Assembly: GCA_010405405.1 (NCBI GenBank)
Contig: MU004240.1
Span: 636,217 to 700,216 of the forward strand
DNA: 64,000 bases
From: Microthyrium microscopicum
Taxonomy: Eukaryota; Ascomycota; Dothideomycetes; Microthyriales; Microthyriaceae
Direction: 5' to 3'
Part shown: piece by piece, positions 3,710-51,746 of the stretch
Numbering within the stretch: the first letter of the stretch is position 1
Layout: each line of letters begins with the position of its first letter
The notes under the pieces: generated by a model
Told to the model about the DNA's origin: nothing
The model's database searches: none
The model's input: only the letters and a program-made list of their open reading frames with translations
Translations under genes and position numbers: made by a program

Positions 3710-5230
3710 ATGGTGAAACCACAACCGCCACAAGATGTGCTGGATTCGTGGCCGACGCAGAACTTGGTAAACCCCGAATACCATTCACACACAGCGTTCT
3801 TGGGGATAACGTTGGCAATGACAATCCTAACCATGATTGTCATTTCATTAAGAACATATGTGCGGTTCTTCATGCTTCGAGCGCCTGGGTGGGATGACTA
3901 CTTCATATTCATAGCAGCTGTAAGGCTTGCCTCCTTACTTCACTACGAGCTTCGCTAAAGATTACAGATCGCGGACATCGGGTTGTTGATAGTGATCAAC
4001 CTGGGTATTTTAAATTATGGATGGGGTGAGCATAATTCACTCTTGGACATGAGCTTGATCACTAACATGTGGAAGATCGACATCAATGGGATCAGCGACC
4101 TGAATGGTTCCAGGTATCCGAACTGGTACGTCGAAGCAACAGATAACAAAATACCAATTGCACCTCTAACACTCAGTAGATCCAATACCTGACTCAAATA
4201 TGCTTCATTATCCTAATGACGTTTTCTAAACTATCGGCTCTGGTCACTTATCTTCGAGCTTCTTCGAGAACCAAATACAACCGTTTTGTCTGGGCTACAA
4301 TGATAATTGTCGCGTTGTGGGGAATATGTATGCGCTCCTCGACAGATCCAAAACTTAAGCTAACTATTTCTTAGCTTTCCTGTTCGCAACGATATTCCAG
4401 TGCACGTAGGTCAATCGACTCTACAGGACGTTGTACTTGCTAACTTATATAGACCGATACATCTATATTGGACCAGCAAAGACGGAAAGGGTTGCACAAA
4501 CGAGGACATCAGGCTCCTTCTGGCGACAGTGGTCAACATCATCACCGATATCATGGTCGTCCTAATGCCCATCCCTATCATCATGAAGCTTCACTTCCCA
4601 CTACGAGAAAAGATCACTCTAGGCATTCTAATGTGTCTCGGCATGGTGTAAGTAATCCAACAGAAACCCTGATTTTCCGCGAAACTAAGAATATCTAGTG
4701 CCACTGTCGCATCCATTGTCCGAACAGTCGTAATGTCCCAATCTCTTAATACCCTGCGCTACGACACAACCTGGAACTCCTTCGTAGTATGGATCTGGCT
4801 ATCTCTCGAATGTAACCTCGCCATAATTTGCATCTCCGTTCCTGTCCTCCGTGTTCTTGCCCGCCGCCTCCTCCCACAATACTGGGGTCCCTCCGGCTCG
4901 CGATCAGGAGGATACGCGCATACGTATGGAGCAAAGACCATGCACAGCCACCACATGGCTTCTACCACACACGTTCCACGAGAAGCCAAGCATGCCAGTT
5001 TCACCAGTCTGGAGACTAAAGCACTGAAAGACACCGACGATATAGAAATGTACGGTATACGGAGAACAGACTCGCTAAAGAGCTACAGCTACCCCGATCC
5101 AGGCTATGGACATAGCCAGACGAGCATGAACAGTAGGATACCGGAGGCAGGGGAGTATCACCACCAACACCATTATCGGCCACCGCGGGATGATCACTCG
5201 AGGCATGCTGAAGTGGCTCGTGCGATATGA
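3710..5230 (+). CDS. Rhodopsin-like seven-helix integral membrane protein (PTH11/SAT4-like)
   Basis: Fungal-specific multi-pass membrane protein of the rhodopsin-fold family that includes PTH11-like receptors. Members are thought to sense surface or chemical cues, but the ligand here is unknown. Seven exons: 3710-3919, 3968-4025, 4076-4125, 4180-4327, 4375-4405, 4453-4647 and 4699-5230, giving 407 residues with all phases closing. Family hallmarks are the Arg-Trp-type loop APGWDDYF after helix 2, YGWDRHQW, the FQCTPIHLYW motif (split by two introns around a 31-base exon), DIMVVLMPIPII and WIWLSLECNLAIICISVPVLR. The C-terminal 130 residues are hydrophilic, rich in His, Ser and Tyr, and probably cytoplasmic. 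A second family member lies at 48.9 kb. Family is sure; role is not. Confidence 0.85.
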
Positions 5231-42527: not shown

Positions 42528-42650
42528 ACACATAGAAATCACAAAGATGAGAAATATGATAGTAGTCAATCAAATCCGACCCCAGACACCGGAGTTGGCC
42601 CGTTCATTAGGAACTTGGACATGCAATACAGTATGACTTTTTCTGACCCT

Positions 42651-43218
42651 TCACTCGTTCTCTACGACCGTGGTGTGTAGACCTTTGGGATTCTTGACGT
42701 TGACGGCCTGCACATAGCTGTAGAGCTTCTCCTTTGCGCCCTCCTCGTCATTACGCTTTCTTGAGATGCGAACGCGTAGTCTGTATGGCACACCCTTGAC
42801 ACCGGATTCCCAGACCTTCTTGTTGAGCTGGGGGTCGAGGCGGACATCGGAGGTACCCTAGAGTCGTCGCATGAGTAAAAATCGCACAGTGACCAAGCTG
42901 TAGACTTACCATAGCCTTGTGGGCAAATGCGCGAATCTCCTTGATAGCTTTTGGAGCTCTCTTCTTGAAGGCTACGCCATGAACCTGTGCAAAAACGAAT
43001 CAGTCTTCCGCCCGATACCAATGTGCTTTGAGATGCAGATTTGGCCCTTGATGGACTTCACAAAACTGATTTATAGGGAGGGTCTGGGTGTTTGATGCCA
43101 TTGAGGCAATTCAAAAACGTACTCGCTTGTGAAGGTGGATGGTGTATTCGCGGGCGACGACGTCGGCAATGGCACTGCGGCCAGCCTTGGGCTCTTTGGT
43201 AGCTTTCGATTTGGCCAT
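42651..43218 (-). CDS. RPL31: Large-subunit ribosomal protein eL31
   Basis: Cytosolic 60S ribosomal protein near the exit tunnel. Three exons: 43218-43123, 42984-42910 and 42857-42651, giving 125 residues. The sequence MAKSKATKEPKAGRSAIADV, VAREYTIHLHKR, VHGVAFKKRAPKAIKEIRAF, DVRLDPQLNKKVWESGVKGV and PYRLRVRISRKRNDEE is a textbook eL31. Introns of 138 and 52 bases fall after Arg and Met codons, both in phase 0. The position of the first intron soon after the start codon is typical of fungal ribosomal genes. Confidence 0.97.
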
Positions 43219-45124
43219 TGCTAAATGAAACTGGTTAGAAACGAGCTCTCAAAGAATTTTGGCGATCAGAATACCTGTGATTTGACAATGGTCGTCGTGT
43301 AGTCGAATTGTGCAATTGCTAGGCCTTGCAATATTTTGGAGCAAGAAGTTGGAGAGTGTGGGCTTGGCATGGTCTGTGCTGGATGAATCAGCAGCTCCAA
43401 GGGCTCTAGCCAGATTTGGCTGAGGCGGATTTTCCGACTTCAAAATGCTGGAAAAGTACCTTTTGAATCCGAAACTTGGGACTTCAACCACTCAACTGCT
43501 TTGCCATCAAGGTTCCAAATAGTAACCGTAACTCATTTTCGCTTCATTGTCCGCATCTATTCCCCTATGCGACACTCTTGGTGCCGCTCCATAATAGGAA
43601 GCTACCTATGCACTGCCAACAGATTGCAAAGATATGGAAGGATAACGATGATAGACCTATCTCTTCGAATCCATCGATTGCCGATGCAGATTATTGAGTA
43701 TCTACTCTATCAAGAACTAACCATGAAAACCTGGTGTCGATCGAAAATCGTGGGAGCAAGCTAACCTCATCAGATTTGTTTGAGAATGATAGGCTAAGAA
43801 CTTGTTATTCATGCTTTATAGTAATGATTCCCAAGTATTGCTATTAAAATTGTGCGTTTGCCTCATAAGCCAAGGGATTGCTATATCACAATGTAGTCGG
43901 ACTATCAATAACTCGTCATGCTGTGCATAGTACCCGAGAATTGCTCCCACTTGTATATTTGGTGCGCCAAGTAACGGCACAACGACTCCTATGAATTGGA
44001 ACATTGCATATTATAATACTTAGTCGTCCAACGCACTTCAATGTGCCTACCTCCGTACTCTGACATGGTTCCAATCAGGTGAGCTAGTTGTGTGCTCCTC
44101 TCATCAACTGCAGGCGTGATGTGCCCCATGACAATTTCTGAAGTAAGACGGCTCTAACTCCCAGGACATTCGATAACGGACATAGAAGTCTAATCAATAT
44201 TATTGAGACGTAGATAGCTTATTTTTGGGTATATCAGCAGCAAGTAATAAACTCACCTATATCCTAGAGCATCTCCTGTACGGCTACTTCGTACTGCTTC
44301 TTGACGTGAAAAGTTTGGAATATCAAACTACCTAAGCAATTGTTAGCAACGACAACAACTGCATTGGACTTCTATCAATTCTCGGGGACTTTCCCGTTCC
44401 AACTGCTGTTGCACCAGTAATCTTCACCGGGCCGAATGCATGAAAATGTTCCTGACTCCTGAGCCTGTCAAAATAAACTCCGAGCCGGTGAAGCTGTAGG
44501 TTTCAGAGATGGCCGGCGCCACATCGCCAGGTCTGAAGCTAGGATCCACTACGAAGCACCAATTGAATTGGCGAATCGCATACTTAGTGTTAAAAAACCT
44601 GGACTTGCGGCTGAACCAAAATATTATGCTTGTCCTTTCTTGGAACCATGGCTGGGTATCGCGTCGCCTTTCCCCAACTCCACCGTGACCAAGTGAGATT
44701 GAAGTCTGAAGGTTGTCAGTCGTACGAACTTGCTGAGAACGTGTTCAATGCTTTGTTTGAACTACCTTTGATATGTTTTCCAGCTGCAGTACATGGTAAT
44801 ACATGCTTCAGATGGTTGCTCAGGCAGCGTTGCTGCATAGCAGAATCAATCACGACGTCTTGACCAATGTTAGAATTTCCGGTTGACACTTGGCTGGCTG
44901 CAAGAAGAAAGTGGCGTCACGATCCGCGACTTTGTGGAGTCAATCAGAAAAGGGTGAGAAACTCGTGGTCAGACAATAATATCTTAGGAAAACAATTCCG
45001 ATCAGAATCGTTCCTACTTCCTACCATTTCCTCCTTTTTTCCATCACGAAACTCTGACCTCTAACGACATCTCGCGCTTCAATCGTACAAAAAGATACCT
45101 TAATCTCTAATACAACTCCTCAAA
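43219..45124. other. Intergenic region between eL31 and the CFEM-like gene
   Basis: 1.9 kb, AT-rich in 43800-44350. I see no supportable gene, tRNA or clear snoRNA. It holds the divergent upstream regions of both flanking genes. Confidence 0.5.
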
Positions 45125-45863
45125 ATGCGTTACGCTGCTGCCATTTCCTTCTTCGCTAGCCTTGCTGCTGCCGCGACCACTACGACCACGGCTGCCGCTT
45201 CCGGCAGCACCATTTGTCCTGCTACGAAGTAAGACCAGTTCATACAAGTCAGAATCATTATGTTCCTTCAGTAGAACTGAAGGACTACATTGAGGACCAC
45301 AAATTTTAGTTGGCTACGGGTTTCAATAAGTTGCTAACTTTATCTCCTCACAGCATTGTCGATGCCTGCCTGTCAACCACCCAAGCCATACTTACATCTT
45401 GCGCAGCTAATGACTGGTCATGTATGTGCACAGCTCAGCAATCGGTTGTAACGTGAGTTTCTGCACGCCGGGTGTATATTATGCAACCATCGGTATTAGT
45501 CTTGTTTGAACATCCATTGACTTGCCAATCTAGCTGCTTCAACAACTGCCCTCAAGACGCGCGCGCCTCCTCAGCCAACAGCGAGCTCATTCAATGGTGT
45601 GCCGCTGCTAGCCAGTACGTTATATCATATATGGCAAAACCTGCCAAAATACATGAACAGGGCATCTCTAACATTTGACTAGGGTCGCTACCACTTCAAC
45701 CGCTGCCGTCTCTGGATCGTCTACCAAGGCCACTGCTGCCAGTGCTACCACCGGTACAGGAAGCTCTACCAGCAGCACTGCCGCTGTTAAGACTGGTGCT
45801 GCTGGTATCATCGCTCCAGGAAGCGGCATGCTCGCCATGGCCATTGGCGCTGCTCTTCTTTAA
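45125..45863 (+). CDS. Small secreted CFEM-like, probably GPI-anchored wall protein
   Basis: Likely cell-surface protein. Four exons: 45125-45228, 45354-45452, 45534-45614 and 45683-45863, giving 154 residues. A signal peptide (MRYAAAISFFASLAAAA) precedes an eight-cysteine domain. From the third cysteine on it fits the CFEM pattern: CAANDWSCMC, then eight residues, C-FNN-C, then 16 residues and the last C, with the conserved Asp two residues ahead of the CxC pair. The first spacing is C-x8-C instead of C-x3-C. A Ser/Thr/Ala-rich stalk and a hydrophobic C-terminus (GSGMLAMAIGAALL) suggest a GPI anchor. CFEM proteins serve haem uptake, adhesion or virulence; which applies here is unknown. Confidence 0.8.
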
Positions 45864-48800
45864 GCAATCGCTTTGCTTTACCATTCGACCAAAATTCGCG
45901 CAACGGAGTATACCAAATCAAACTGCGATTTCACAATCAAGCGAGTTTCTGAGATTTACACAAATGTAATTAGCTAATGAACAAAATTTTCAAAGAGCCT
46001 TCAAAATCCTTGGCTCAACATTCGTGGAGAGGTATATATATGCTGCGTACAAGTATAAATACCCTCTTCAGAGCTGAGCACTGAGCAACACATCCCGTAC
46101 TAGATACAGTCCAATGCCCGGAATGAGCTTCTCGATATCCTTCCTCCCCGTCTCTGCGGTACGTGCGTTTTCCACGTTTCCTGAAGAAATGGTTAAGCAA
46201 ACAAGGGTTTGCATGTCTCGCAGCAACGTCGACGCATGCGAGCAATAAAGTCTGAGAGACAGCGTAACCTGAAAACACCATCGTTTATCCTACCGGTATG
46301 GCAAAGATAGCTCAGTCGTCCGCGCGTTAAGACCAATTAGCCCAACCGTGGCCCTGGAGCCCGGTATGAGACGCTGGATATATTGCGGGTTCACATGCAC
46401 GGGCTTCTGGTATCATGTCCTCACCATGCTGGTCTCTATTGGGAAGAAGATGGGGACAGCCAGGAGACAAGTGAACGAGTTTGGCCGATGTATACTCTGG
46501 CTATACATTAAATTCGGTTGCACAAAATCGCGCAGACGAACCCGAACAGCACGCGGGTGTACGCATCCCTGTGAAGATATGGTCCTCGGTAAGGGTCGTC
46601 TGGTTCAGTCACGGACGTCGTAGTTCCGTTTAACGTCACTCTGAAGAGCCTAGACGATGATTTTTAAATTAAGGGCAGGTCCCATCTCGGCTTGACTACC
46701 CTGGGTGGTCAAAGTGAAAGGGCCCCGCAGTATTTTGGAATTTCCACTGGTTCGAGGCTACGCTACAAAGTATTTGTTGCAAGGGTGAGAGTATGTTTGG
46801 CAGGCAATATAGTACGAGCGGTTCGTTGTAACCCTTCAAAAGCTTGAGTGCAGATGCTTACTGGTATATCGTTCCCAGAACCACGATGTAGCTTCCAAGT
46901 GCCGCGGCGTGCAGAGTTTTATCCAGGATATTGAGTGATAGACATTACAGAGGAGTACAGTCTTCCATAGATGGTGCCCCCTGGGCTGATTTAGTTACGC
47001 TTTGGGCATTCCATCCGAGCATCTGGGGAAAGCACCGACTCGGCGGATGGGTGTTTATGGGCATATTGAATAACTGGAAGAATGCTTTGCGTTCGCTTGT
47101 CACATGGATTCTGGCACGAGTTGCTGTGATGGTGACAGTCGCAAGGGACTCACCACACCCGCACAAGCTATCCAGAAGTAATTGGATGAGGGCCTGGCAG
47201 CAGAAGTGATCAGGGCTCCTGGAAGATGTATCTGATGACCAAGAAAGGAAACACTGCCCACAGATATGGTCATGATCGTTGACAGAGAAGATGGTTGAAT
47301 TTCAACGGTAATAATTACTTTGTGGGCACTGTTTGACAGATGGTTGACAGCGGATGGATGGAGATCAATTGATAGATGCCAAGTAAACTCATAAATAGCA
47401 GACGTGGCGATAGATGAGAAAGGCTGGGCATGTACTGTAGACCACTCAGCCAACTACTGGAGTAGAATACATGTCGATTGAATACGCCATATGGTGTGGG
47501 GTGCATAAAGCATGCAGCACGATAGTGGATTGATGAATGTATGATCTGATCCATCCAGCAGGAGCCGGGGCGGTTTTGATATTGACACTAGCTGAGGTAC
47601 CTCGTGGTACTGATACTGCTCTCCCCACACAGGAACATGGCGTGGCGCGAACATCCTACTTCTCGACTACTCGGGCCCGGTTCCTATAATCCGCTGTGGT
47701 GGGACACTGATATCGTATCTGGGGTCGCGCGTGTGCAAGTACGTGTGGGGCTTGTTCCACCCAAACCAGAACGTCAACTGGTACAGTGGGCACCGTCAGG
47801 CTTAGAGTCGTAACAACTTACGGGCCGAATCCTACCAAGTCGACCTGCAATCCTGAATTTCTAATAATGCCTTTTGGGTCCAAACTCAAAGTCTAAAAGA
47901 ACCAGAAACTTACATCTACCTCAAGCAGGGTCCTCCAACTGCTCTCGGCCACAGTACGTCCGCGCATTGCCGCTCCATTTGGCCGTGACAAGTTCCCCCA
48001 TACCCTACAAGGGAAAAATCAAATATGCAAGAGCGCGTGTGCCATATTTACAGCTCTTTCGTCTTGCTACCTGCCGCCGTCGCCTTTAGCCCTGTCTGCT
48101 ATAGCTAACCTCTACGATATGCTTCTGAGATCACTTACTGCGGCCCGCATACCCAGCTTGTCCATTGGCTTGAGGTCCGCCCATGCATGCCCAGCCCAAT
48201 ATCGAGTCCCATTTTGTCGCCTGCATCTTGCCCGTTTTTCCAATTGCTCCCAGACAGGGCCATCTATGCTGATCCAGCACTCTATGACTACTCTTCGGCC
48301 CTACTAGCTGGCTTGGGTTTGGTGCTGCTCCTCTTCCCTGCTCTCCGCTTTGCAAAAGCCCAGACAGATCGCCACCATCATCGTGGCCGATGAGCTGCGT
48401 TGGGCGTGTGCTCCTAACATTCCCTTTGTGCAATGCGGAGGTCATGTCACCGGATCCTGGTTGAAGAACTGACCAAGCTCGTCCTGGCCTCTCTCGTCAG
48501 TCCCGGCCGACGGGACTATTCAGTTGTAGCAGTTCCCATCGACCACTACTCTTTCCCTTCTCCATAAATCCAATTTGTGCGCTTTGGCCTCGGCGAACTG
48601 CTCGTGCCCAGGTTCATTCATCTCCCATCTGTTCCAAAAGTATACTTTTCTTCCTTAGCTTTGTTTGTGAATTACTCTCCACCTCATCATCGTCGACGCC
48701 TATGACACGAAGTCCTTTGCGAACGCCATTACCGTGACCGATATCTGATAGTCGCAATTCTTCTTGATATGACGCTCGATACCACTGGACTCGAACATCG

Positions 48801-48905
48801 CCACATCACGTCCGCTCGCTGTTAAATCTAGCTGTTGCTGCTGTTGAGCACATCCAGAACCAATGGGTTGCCAACCGCCGTCCAAATCGCTAGACATTGA
48901 TTATC
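45864..48905. other. Three-kilobase gene-poor region
   Basis: No open frame here has family motifs, splice logic or fungal codon bias. I found no terminal repeats or transposase remnants by eye. The end includes the upstream region of the rhodopsin/MFS gene, with CT-rich stretches from about 48480 to 48680. Confidence 0.45.
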
Positions 48906-51746
48906 ATGGCTGATAATCTGACACCCTATGTGATGTCCGTGGCTCAGCCTATGACTGGCGAGTCTCGAGGGCCAATAGTTCTGGTGGTGACGGCGGTGAT
49001 ACTTATATTGTCGACACTTTTCGTCCTCTTACGACTGATATCGAAATTCGGTGTTGTGCGGAGGGTGGCATGGGATGACTATTTCATGATACTAGCCTGG
49101 GTGAGTTTGTTGTACGTGTGATGTACTCTGTCAACATTACTGACGCAAATGCAGTTCTTGGCTTTTGGATTATCATTCGCAATATGTTATGGTACACGAG
49201 TAGGACTGGGTATGCATGAGAATACTGTACCTCAGGAATGGCAGAGTGCTCTGAAAAAATCAGAATTCGCATTTTCGGTCTTATACGTACGTTGTCGATT
49301 CAAACTAAACATCTATTCAAACGAAACTTACTCTATCCAGAATCCTGCTCTCATGGCGACCAAAACTTCGATTCTTACTTTCTACCTCTCATTATCTCAC
49401 GGCAACAAATTCTTTCGATATTCCACCTTTGCAACGCTTGCAGTTGTTAACATTGCTGGGATCGCGTTGACGTTTCTCAATATTTTTCAATGTCGACCGA
49501 TGACCGCAATATTCAAGACTCCAGTGCCGGCAACTGCTCGTTGCACTGATATTGTTACACTCTATCTATCATCGGCACCCGCTAATATCATTACGGATCT
49601 AGCAATCTTGTTTCTACCGATGCCGATATTGACTGCTATGCGCCTACCCCGAAAGCAGAAAACAATTTTGGTAATCACCTTCGGCTTTGGCTTTTTCGTG
49701 GCCGTGGTCGACGTAATCCGGATCATATACCTCCAGGATGCATCTCTCAATCGCCTCGAGGAACTCACTAGATCTAATGGAGCCACATCTACTCTGGACC
49801 AAAGAGACCAGACTGACGTGTCTTGGTACGCATCGCTCTCTTTCATGTGGTCAGCAATAGAAGTCAATGTCGGGATAATGTGCGCAAACGTCCCAGGCTT
49901 GAAACCTTTAGTTTCTCGCTTCATGCCATATATTCTTCGCGACAAGGGAGATCAAAGCATGTCTGCCAATGGCCCCGAAAAGATTACCTCACTAGATCGA
50001 GCACATCAAAGGCTAGGCTCTGATGCTACACCTGCCGCTCCAGCAGCGCAGGAGTCAGAGGCTCAATTTGGCTCAGCGCAAGAGCGGCCTTATAACGATA
50101 TGATTGATATGATGGACTTTCTGACAACTCCGGACATGGCTGAATTACCATCCAACTTGAGACGACCACCCACCGCAGTCCCAACGGAACGAGCACCTAG
50201 CAGAGGCCCGCAGACGTTTTTCGACTTCGTGGTGGTGGAGCAAAAGAAGAGCATGGTCAAACTAACCAATCGAGAATCTCTATTTCCAATTGCAATGGTC
50301 ACGGTTCTATTCTTTCTCTGGGGTGTTGCCTACGGCTTTCTGGACACACTAAATGCTCGATTTCAGTCGATCGCTCATATGACTCAGGCCCAAAGTGTTG
50401 GTATTCATAGCGCATACTTCGGTGCTTATTCCGTGGGGACGCTTACCGTTGGTCGTTTGATATTGAAGCATTTCGGGTTCAAAGCATGCTATGTAGCTGG
50501 TCTTTGTTTGTATGGTTGTGGGACTCTGGTTTTCTGGCCATCTGCCGTCCTGAGTTCTTTTCCGGCTTTTCTCATCTCCAATTTCATGGTCGGCATGGGA
50601 CTGTCCCTTCTTGAAATAGCGGCAAATCCTTTTGTCGCGCTCTGTGGACCACAAGAATGGATGGAACTAAGACTTAATCTTTCCCAAGGCATCCAAGCGA
50701 TTGGCACCGTCTTCTCTCCTCTTCTGGCCTCCAAAGTTCTATTCAAAGAAACCACAAGCGCTCCAAGTCTAATCGATGTTCAATGGACATATCTCGGAAT
50801 CGCGCTATTCACAATCGTCCTAGCAGTAGCATACTTCTACCTCCCTCTTCCCGAAGCTACCGACGACGAACTCGAAGAAGCCGCCGAACATCCTGATCTT
50901 CTCAATCTCACCGAAATCCGCGGCACCCGTCTAGTCCTAATCACCTTAATAATGGGCTGCATATGCATGTTCTGCTATGTCGGTGCTCAAGAAGCAATCT
51001 CTACCACGTTCCCCCAATACATCAAGCTGCAACTGAAAAGCCGCGGCGAACTCCTCATCGACGTTGGAAGCACCGAATTCCTCGCCATTGGCCACAGCAC
51101 CTTTGCCGCCGGTCGCTTCCTCGCCGCCTTTTTAAACCTCTTCATCAAACCTCGCATCCTCCTCCTCATCTTCTTCCTAGGCGCAGTCATTACCAGCGCC
51201 CTTGCTATGCGCCTCGACTCTAATGCGACCGAGGCCGTAGTCCTTCTTCTCTATTTCTTCGAAGGTCCCATCTTCGCCTTCATCTACGGCATGAGTCTGC
51301 GTGGCCTTGGACGTCACACCAAGGACGGCGCAGCTCTCATTACTGCCAGCATATCTGGCGGCGGTGTGTTCCCACCAATTCTATATGGTGTGGCAGGTGG
51401 TAATCCGGCGTACTTCCAAGGCGCTTACCGCGTCATCGTGGCAGCCTTTGCCATCGGCATGCTATTCCCACTGTACCTCAACTTCTTCCCACTGGCCCGC
51501 CGAATCGCCGACCCAGTCCGCAAGTCCAACGGACTACCGCGCCATGACCGCACGTCCACGCAGCCGCCAGCATTTGGCCGAATGAGCAACAGCTCCGGAC
51601 GACCATCGTCGAATCTCGAAGTCCTCGATGGGTCAAAGATGGCAGTCCCGATGCTGAGTATGCCAAAACCACCCGTACTACGAACAGGCTCAGAGACGAC
51701 ATCAACAAGCCAACGCGCAGTCTCACGACCAGTCTCACCACTATAA
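48906..51746 (+). CDS. Fusion of a rhodopsin-like seven-helix domain with an MFS (FucP-type) transporter
   Basis: One continuous reading frame joins two membrane modules. Exons: 48906-49100, 49155-49286 and 49341-51746, giving 910 residues. Residues 1-295 are the fungal rhodopsin-like fold: VAWDDYFMILAW, VGLGMHENTVP, LNIFQCRPM, ILFLPMPIL and WSAIEVNVGIMCANVPGLKP. A hydrophilic linker at about 300-415 includes DMIDMMDFLTTPDMAELP. Residues 420-820 form an MFS transporter resembling L-fucose/glucose-galactose permeases: PIAMVTVLFFLWGVAYGFLDTLN, here in parts, HSAYFGAYSVG, GMGLSLLEIAANPFVALCGP, RLNLSQGIQAIGTVFSPLLA, YVGAQEAI and GHSTFAAGRFLAAFLN. The tail is polar. The second intron is 54 bases, stop-free and in frame. 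No stop or splice pair separates the halves: exon 3 spans both. Confidence 0.9.

What the first reader, a model, noticed from the sequence alone, without database searches (positions are those of the whole stretch)
48906..51746. A rhodopsin-fold receptor-like domain fused to an MFS sugar-type permease
The frame encodes an N-terminal PTH11/SAT4-like seven-helix domain (WDDYF, FQCRP, final WSAIEVNVGIMC helix) and, after a polar linker, a full FucP/glucose-galactose-type MFS transporter. Both parts are complete by motif and lie in one exon, so this is not a simple annotation merge. Such a chain of about 19 helices would be a natural candidate for a transceptor: a sensor physically tied to the transporter of its cue. 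The domain reading is direct; the joint function is inference.
Basis: partly seen in the sequence, partly recalled or inferred. Interest (0 to 1): 0.82.

Follow-up and report, generated by a model that had tools for sequence, protein, structure and literature searches.

The report
Fungal receptor-like protein fused to sugar transporter
A fungal gene appears to encode one protein that joins a receptor-like seven-helix domain to a complete fucose-type sugar transporter, a possible built-in sensor and transporter, though no experiment or second species could be checked here.

Summary
The gene at 48906-51746 (+) is best read as three exons, giving 910 residues (no transcripts seen). TM3-7, the linker and the whole transporter share exon 3; TM1-2 and part of TM3 do not.

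Residues 42-302 match the full Fung_rhodopsin model (E 3.2e-55). The C-terminal half matches L-fucose:H+ symporters (NCBIfam fucP 3.7e-43, below the equivalog cut-off; solved FucP 5.2e-31). FucP's acids D46 and E135 are kept; Y365 is Phe and N162 is Gln. Hydropathy gives 7 + 12 helices around a basic 131-residue linker.

The linker is open in one of six frames and holds no GTRNGY donor, though one lies at the end of TM7. No second copy of the transporter half was found in the genome. Intron 1 sits where at least 7 of 18 paralogue sites have theirs.

Most likely this is a real receptor-transporter fusion; coupling is inference. The nearest known design is animal LYCHOS/GPR155. No fungal sequence collection was available, so conservation, the decisive test, is open.

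The parts
48906..49100 (+). Exon 1: start codon, N-terminus, TM1 and the first residues of TM2 (ends ...WDDYFMILAW)
   Evidence: an in-frame TAG at 48891 lies upstream of the ATG
49101..49154 (+). Predicted intron 1, 54 bases (GTGAGT...GCAG), phase 0, 7 residues after the Asp-Asp of WDDY
   Evidence: same position in 7 of 18 distinct paralogue sites examined
49155..49286 (+). Exon 2: rest of TM2 to start of TM3
49287..49340 (+). Predicted intron 2, 54 bases (GTACGT...CCAG); a multiple of three without an in-frame stop, so its retention would insert 18 residues in TM3
   Evidence: the ORF tool reads through it
49341..51746 (+). Exon 3: rest of TM3 to TM7, linker, complete 12-helix transporter, C-tail and stop
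49029..49919 (+). Fungal rhodopsin (PTH11/SAT4-like) domain, residues 42-302 of the spliced protein (span includes both introns)
   Evidence: Pfam PF20684, E 3.2e-55, model 1-237/237
49887..50279 (+). Linker, residues 292-422: polar, 16 Lys+Arg, no GTRNGY donor, no stop in frame
50280..51488 (+). FucP-type (FHS family) MFS transporter, 12 predicted helices, residues 423-825; D444 and E534 align with D46 and E135 of FucP
51489..51743 (+). Polar C-terminal tail, residues 826-910

Best explanation
The gene makes one 910-residue membrane protein. A PTH11/SAT4-like seven-helix domain (N-terminus outside, C-terminus in the cytosol) is tied by a 131-residue basic cytosolic linker to a complete FucP-type proton:sugar symporter whose N-terminus also lies in the cytosol, so the two halves fit in one membrane without an extra helix. 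Most likely the transporter half imports a sugar (a deoxyhexose such as L-rhamnose or L-fucose, or a hexose) with protons, and the receptor half senses the same or a related cue and either adjusts the transporter or reports its activity. Shown by sequence: both domains, their completeness, one open frame, helices by hydropathy, retained proton-coupling acids. Inferred: splicing, topology, location, substrate, sensing and coupling. My separate estimates: one fused protein 0.85; working transporter 0.7; functional coupling of the halves 0.35-0.45.
For: Full-length PF20684 and MFS_1 matches in one frame; fucP model and FucP structure matches; D46 and E135 equivalents kept (their role is from passages of PMC3824880 and, for D46, PMC4882079); 7 + 12 hydrophobic segments with a basic linker; linker open in one frame only; no GTRNGY donor in 49900-50260; no second copy of the FucP-type half found in the genome, so no separate gene was found that could do this transport; intron 1 at a shared family position.
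Against: No transcript, protein or second species was available. The score is below the curated fucP cut-off (148.3 against 280.4 bits), and Y365 and N162 of FucP are replaced by Phe and Gln, so the substrate may differ. Nothing shows G-protein coupling, ligand binding or cross-talk. An ATG with A at -3 stands at 50253, so a separate transporter from an internal start is not excluded. Two GTRNGY donors lie just before the linker, at 49826 and 49880, with YAG sites downstream; most of those pairings shift the frame, and both donors lie inside the stretch matched by Pfam (to 49919), so their use would cut the receptor domain.
Confidence: 0.45

Rival explanations
1. Real fusion without functional coupling: the receptor-like domain only anchors, targets or stabilises the transporter, or is a neutral passenger of a gene fusion.
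For: The linker resembles the polar tails that end other family members (frame ends read by eye), as if the transporter had simply been joined at the end of a receptor tail; the receptor half has only distant paralogues (best-scoring 29% identity; 23-44% over parts) and no known ligand.
Against: The full domain and the quoted motifs are kept in the receptor half, which a passenger would tend to lose over time; the age of the fusion is unknown.
Confidence: 0.27
2. One locus, two products: a full fusion and also a transporter-only form from an internal promoter or start (ATG 50253), or cleavage in the linker.
For: In-frame ATG at 50253 with A at -3, just before the FucP-type domain.
Against: No stop closes the receptor frame before 51744, so the receptor cannot end as a separate ordinary gene unless a donor such as 49880 is used.
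Confidence: 0.13
3. The transporter half is a non-transporting sensor (as Snf3/Rgt2 are among sugar porters, recalled) and the seven-helix half is its signalling output.
For: Replacement of the Y365 and N162 equivalents; no second copy found.
Against: D46 and E135 equivalents are kept; 12 helices are predicted.
Confidence: 0.09
4. Two neighbouring genes read as one: an unseen intron or terminator around the linker separates them.
For: No transcript evidence here; GTRNGY donors at 49826 and 49880 with YAG acceptors in the linker, some after a CTGAT branch-like site, could shift the frame into a stop.
Against: 342 bases open only in the coding frame; no GTRNGY donor in the linker itself; those two donors lie inside the matched receptor domain; little room for a terminator and a promoter.
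Confidence: 0.06

Closest known systems
LYCHOS/GPR155 (animals and close relatives)
   Same: One chain that joins a complete transporter-like domain to a GPCR-like seven-helix domain; 17 helices; proposed link of transport and sensing (PMC11574030, part 1 of 2 of the text; PMC12716839, passages).
   Different: There the transporter (10-helix, PIN-like) comes first and the GPCR-like domain second, with a DEP domain; here a PTH11-like domain comes first and a 12-helix FucP-type MFS second. The parts are of other families; GPR155 is reported absent from non-holozoan lineages.
PTH11-like (class 14) fungal receptors, Pfam PF20684
   Same: The receptor half matches the whole model, has 7 predicted helices and the shared intron position.
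   Different: At 15 other family sites of this genome no transporter was seen after the domain: frames at 12 of the 15 were scanned with Pfam and gave PF20684 or nothing; the other three were read by eye from frame ends only. Pfam reported no CFEM domain in the fusion, as in most of the class: 4.1% carry it (PMC12842992, passages).
RhtA, the A. niger L-rhamnose transporter, and E. coli FucP (FHS family, TC 2.A.1.7)
   Same: The transporter half is of the FucP type; PMC5161314 (passages) calls FucP-domain proteins well represented throughout fungi and RhtA the first validated eukaryotic one.
   Different: The passages read do not mention a fused receptor domain; the RhtA sequence was not compared here.
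GPCR-bigrams of oomycetes and other protists
   Same: A seven-helix receptor N-terminal to another functional domain in one chain (PMC6033456 and PMC5784254, passages).
   Different: Their second domains are signalling enzymes (kinases, phosphatases, cyclases, phosphodiesterases); no transporter type is listed in the passages read, and PMC5784254 discarded known transporters beforehand.
Yeast nutrient transceptors (PMC3824880, two passages, and the start of its abstract)
   Same: Transport and sensing in one protein.
   Different: There the transporter itself is the receptor; here a separate receptor-type domain is attached.

Membership tests
Fungal rhodopsin / PTH11-like (PF20684) | Full-length match above the curated cut-off | tested here: met
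   187.7 bits against cut-off 27, model 1-237/237
Fungal rhodopsin / PTH11-like (PF20684) | Seven transmembrane helices | tested here: met
   Seven hydrophobic segments before the linker (hydropathy only)
Fungal rhodopsin / PTH11-like (PF20684) | Signals through a G protein (for the name GPCR) | not testable with these tools
   No experiment available
FHS (FucP) family of MFS | Homology over nearly the whole FucP length | tested here: met
   TIGR00885 positions 2-375/410, E 3.7e-43; 3o7q residues 22-410 of 438, E 5.2e-31
FHS (FucP) family of MFS | Proton/substrate acids D46 and E135 | tested here: met
   D444 and E534
L-fucose:H+ symporter FucP (equivalog) | Score over the equivalog cut-off | tested here: not met
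   148.3 bits against 280.4; Y365 to Phe, N162 to Gln: substrate not assigned
LYCHOS/GPR155 | PIN-like transporter plus GPCR-like domain plus DEP domain | tested here: not met
   Pfam finds only PF20684 and MFS_1 at E up to 0.001; works-like comparison only
Transceptor | Transport plus signalling by the same protein | not testable with these tools
   Needs uptake and signalling assays

The most novel reading that the evidence does not exclude
A fungal counterpart of LYCHOS that arose independently from other parts: a PTH11-like receptor physically joined to a sugar:proton symporter, working as one sensing-and-uptake unit, and in this genome the only form in which this transporter family was found.
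Probability: 0.3. Interest if true: 0.8.

Novelty: new variant of a known kind. Interest (0 to 1): 0.52.

Why it matters
PTH11-like proteins are the most abundant class of putative fungal receptors (PMC12842992, abstract and passages), and the cues of most are, as far as I recall, unknown. A member joined to a transporter would point to its likely cue class (a sugar), make ligand and coupling directly testable, and give an independent example beside LYCHOS of receptor-transporter hybrids.

Tried and rejected
Looked for relatives of the fusion outside the genome: viral contigs with exon 3 (7 stretches matched a pattern, none confirmed) and with a degenerate motif pattern (0), genome contigs with the transporter half (21 stretches matched, none confirmed). 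By their descriptions these collections hold viruses, bacteria and archaea, so this says nothing on conservation. Paper searches aimed at such a fusion listed no paper describing one: 4, 0, 0, 2, 4 and 0 papers (open full text only; judged from titles, abstract starts and, for some, passages). That is weak evidence that it is not in print. Annotated databases of fungal proteins were not on hand.

Rejected: one-exon gene; gluP-type rather than fucP-type. Made unlikely: simple annotation merge. A sugar-pathway gene cluster was not seen: of the 11 other long ORFs of the window, nine were scanned with Pfam and show an AFG1-like ATPase, DUF4045/gelsolin, a short-chain dehydrogenase, HhH-GPD, a borderline Myb match, Fumble, VPS9, a glycosyl hydrolase core, and one without match; intron-rich genes were not modelled. 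No Rfam match at the gathering score in 42-53 kb. No structure was predicted: the spliced protein is not read letter for letter from one frame and no deep alignment was available.

Full report
Gene model. PTH11-like proteins are reported only from Pezizomycotina (PMC12842992, passages), so the source is taken to be such a fungus (inference). From the ATG at 48906 the frame meets a TGA unless a 54-base intron (49101-49154, GTGAGT...GCAG) is removed. A second 54-base intron (49287-49340, GTACGT...CCAG) has no stop and is read through by the ORF tool. Splicing both gives 910 residues ending at 51746. No transcript was seen.

Receptor half. Pfam finds Fung_rhodopsin over its full length at residues 42-302, E 3.2e-55. 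The genome search with this family gave 61 exon-wise matches, the window's own gene the best. A search with the receptor half gave 17 matches; the first two are the gene itself, the other 15 are 23-44% identical over parts, the best-scoring 29%. Intron 1 lies, in phase 0, seven residues after the Asp-Asp of WDDY. A script over the family loci held at the time (18 distinct genomic sites by my count) found the same position in 7; the other 11 lack it or were missed by the strict pattern. This suggests that the half is an ordinary member of the family with an old intron.

Transporter half. NCBIfam fucP matches with E 3.7e-43 at 148.3 bits, below the equivalog cut-off of 280.4, and gluP with 93.5 bits against 202.55. 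The only solved relatives found are two FucP sequences, 3o7q and 3o7p, E 5.2e-31 and 9.2e-31. D46 and E135, proposed to carry the proton and bind the sugar in FucP (PMC3824880; PMC4882079 for D46), align with D444 and E534. Q159 is kept; N162 is Gln and Y365 is Phe. So it is probably a working proton symporter whose sugar is not known. The A. niger protein RhtA of the same family carries L-rhamnose (PMC5161314, passages).

The join. Between TM7 and the first transporter helix lie 131 residues with 16 Lys and Arg. In the 342-base stretch 49911-50252 the coding frame has no stop and the other five frames have 4-6 each; 0.57% of 20,000 base shuffles were open in that frame; the codon score is highest in the coding frame. 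The same score does not pick the coding frame in exons 1 and 2 or in 50253-51400, so it carries little weight. None of the nine GT in 49900-50260 fits GTRNGY. Two that fit lie earlier, at 49826 and 49880. With the YAG sites up to 50330 they make 23 pairings of at least 45 bases, 4 of them in frame; none of those 4 has a branch-like site in the 10-50 bases before the acceptor, while 8 frame-shifting pairings share one CTGAT. Both donors lie inside the stretch matched by the receptor model, so their use would cut that domain. I hold such splicing unlikely but not excluded. A hydropathy scan gave 19 segments, 7 before and 12 after the linker, at a cut-off of 1.0 that I set. A seven-helix receptor ends in the cytosol and an MFS protein begins there (established topology, recalled), so the join needs no extra helix.

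Only copy found. The transporter half hits only itself in the genome (1 match; searches match each with the fucP and gluP models). Fifteen other receptor-family stretches were fetched and their frames of 100 codons or more listed, with only the first 60 and last 90 residues printed. Frames at 12 of these 15 were scanned with Pfam (2; 10): 10 of 12 gave PF20684 only (one of them, L034, below the curated cut-off), 2 gave nothing, none gave MFS. The three others (L024, L031, L033) were read by eye only. Six-frame search is exon-wise and scores best candidates only, so small exons could be missed.

How it may work. The favoured reading is a sensing-and-uptake unit: the symporter imports a sugar, and the receptor-type half senses the same or a linked cue and adjusts uptake or reports it. 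The best precedent is LYCHOS/GPR155, in which a PIN-like transporter and a GPCR-like domain share one chain (PMC11574030; PMC12716839, passages). Order and parts differ, so this is an analogue and not a family member; whether LYCHOS itself signals through G proteins is unclear by the same sources. GPCR-bigrams are the wider class of receptor fusions, with enzymes as partners. Weaker alternatives are a fusion without coupling, two products from one locus, a non-transporting sensor, or two genes.

Limits. No fungal sequence collection, transcript or protein data were on hand. Searches of viral and prokaryotic contigs could not be expected to hold the fusion. In the listings of the ten paper searches I saw no description of a PTH11-like/MFS fusion; two listings were short cuts of long lists (12 of 1,717, 8 of 213), and only open-licence papers are held. 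Protein databases may already hold annotated examples. Conservation is the decisive open test, and the score reflects that.

Noticed in passing
49287-49340: Intron 2 is 54 bases, a multiple of three, without an in-frame stop; keeping it would insert 18 residues into TM3, a possible isoform.
   Followed up: no
48321-48415: A 95-base stretch upstream of the gene is 100% identical to one other place in the genome (C6:1228718-1228812), which abuts a run of N and lies between two copies of a repeated flank; probably an assembly artefact of C6.
   Followed up: partly
42528-48905: About 6.4 kb upstream without any stop-to-stop frame above 136 aa and with no Rfam match at the gathering score; may hold small multi-exon genes or regulatory DNA.
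   Followed up: partly
4171-4864: Another PF20684 receptor-family match in the same window, in two pieces (C11:640387-641080).
   Followed up: no
L020:2261-4090: A family member on C16 whose last frame of 610 codons runs far beyond the receptor domain; Pfam finds only the end of the receptor domain in it.
   Followed up: partly
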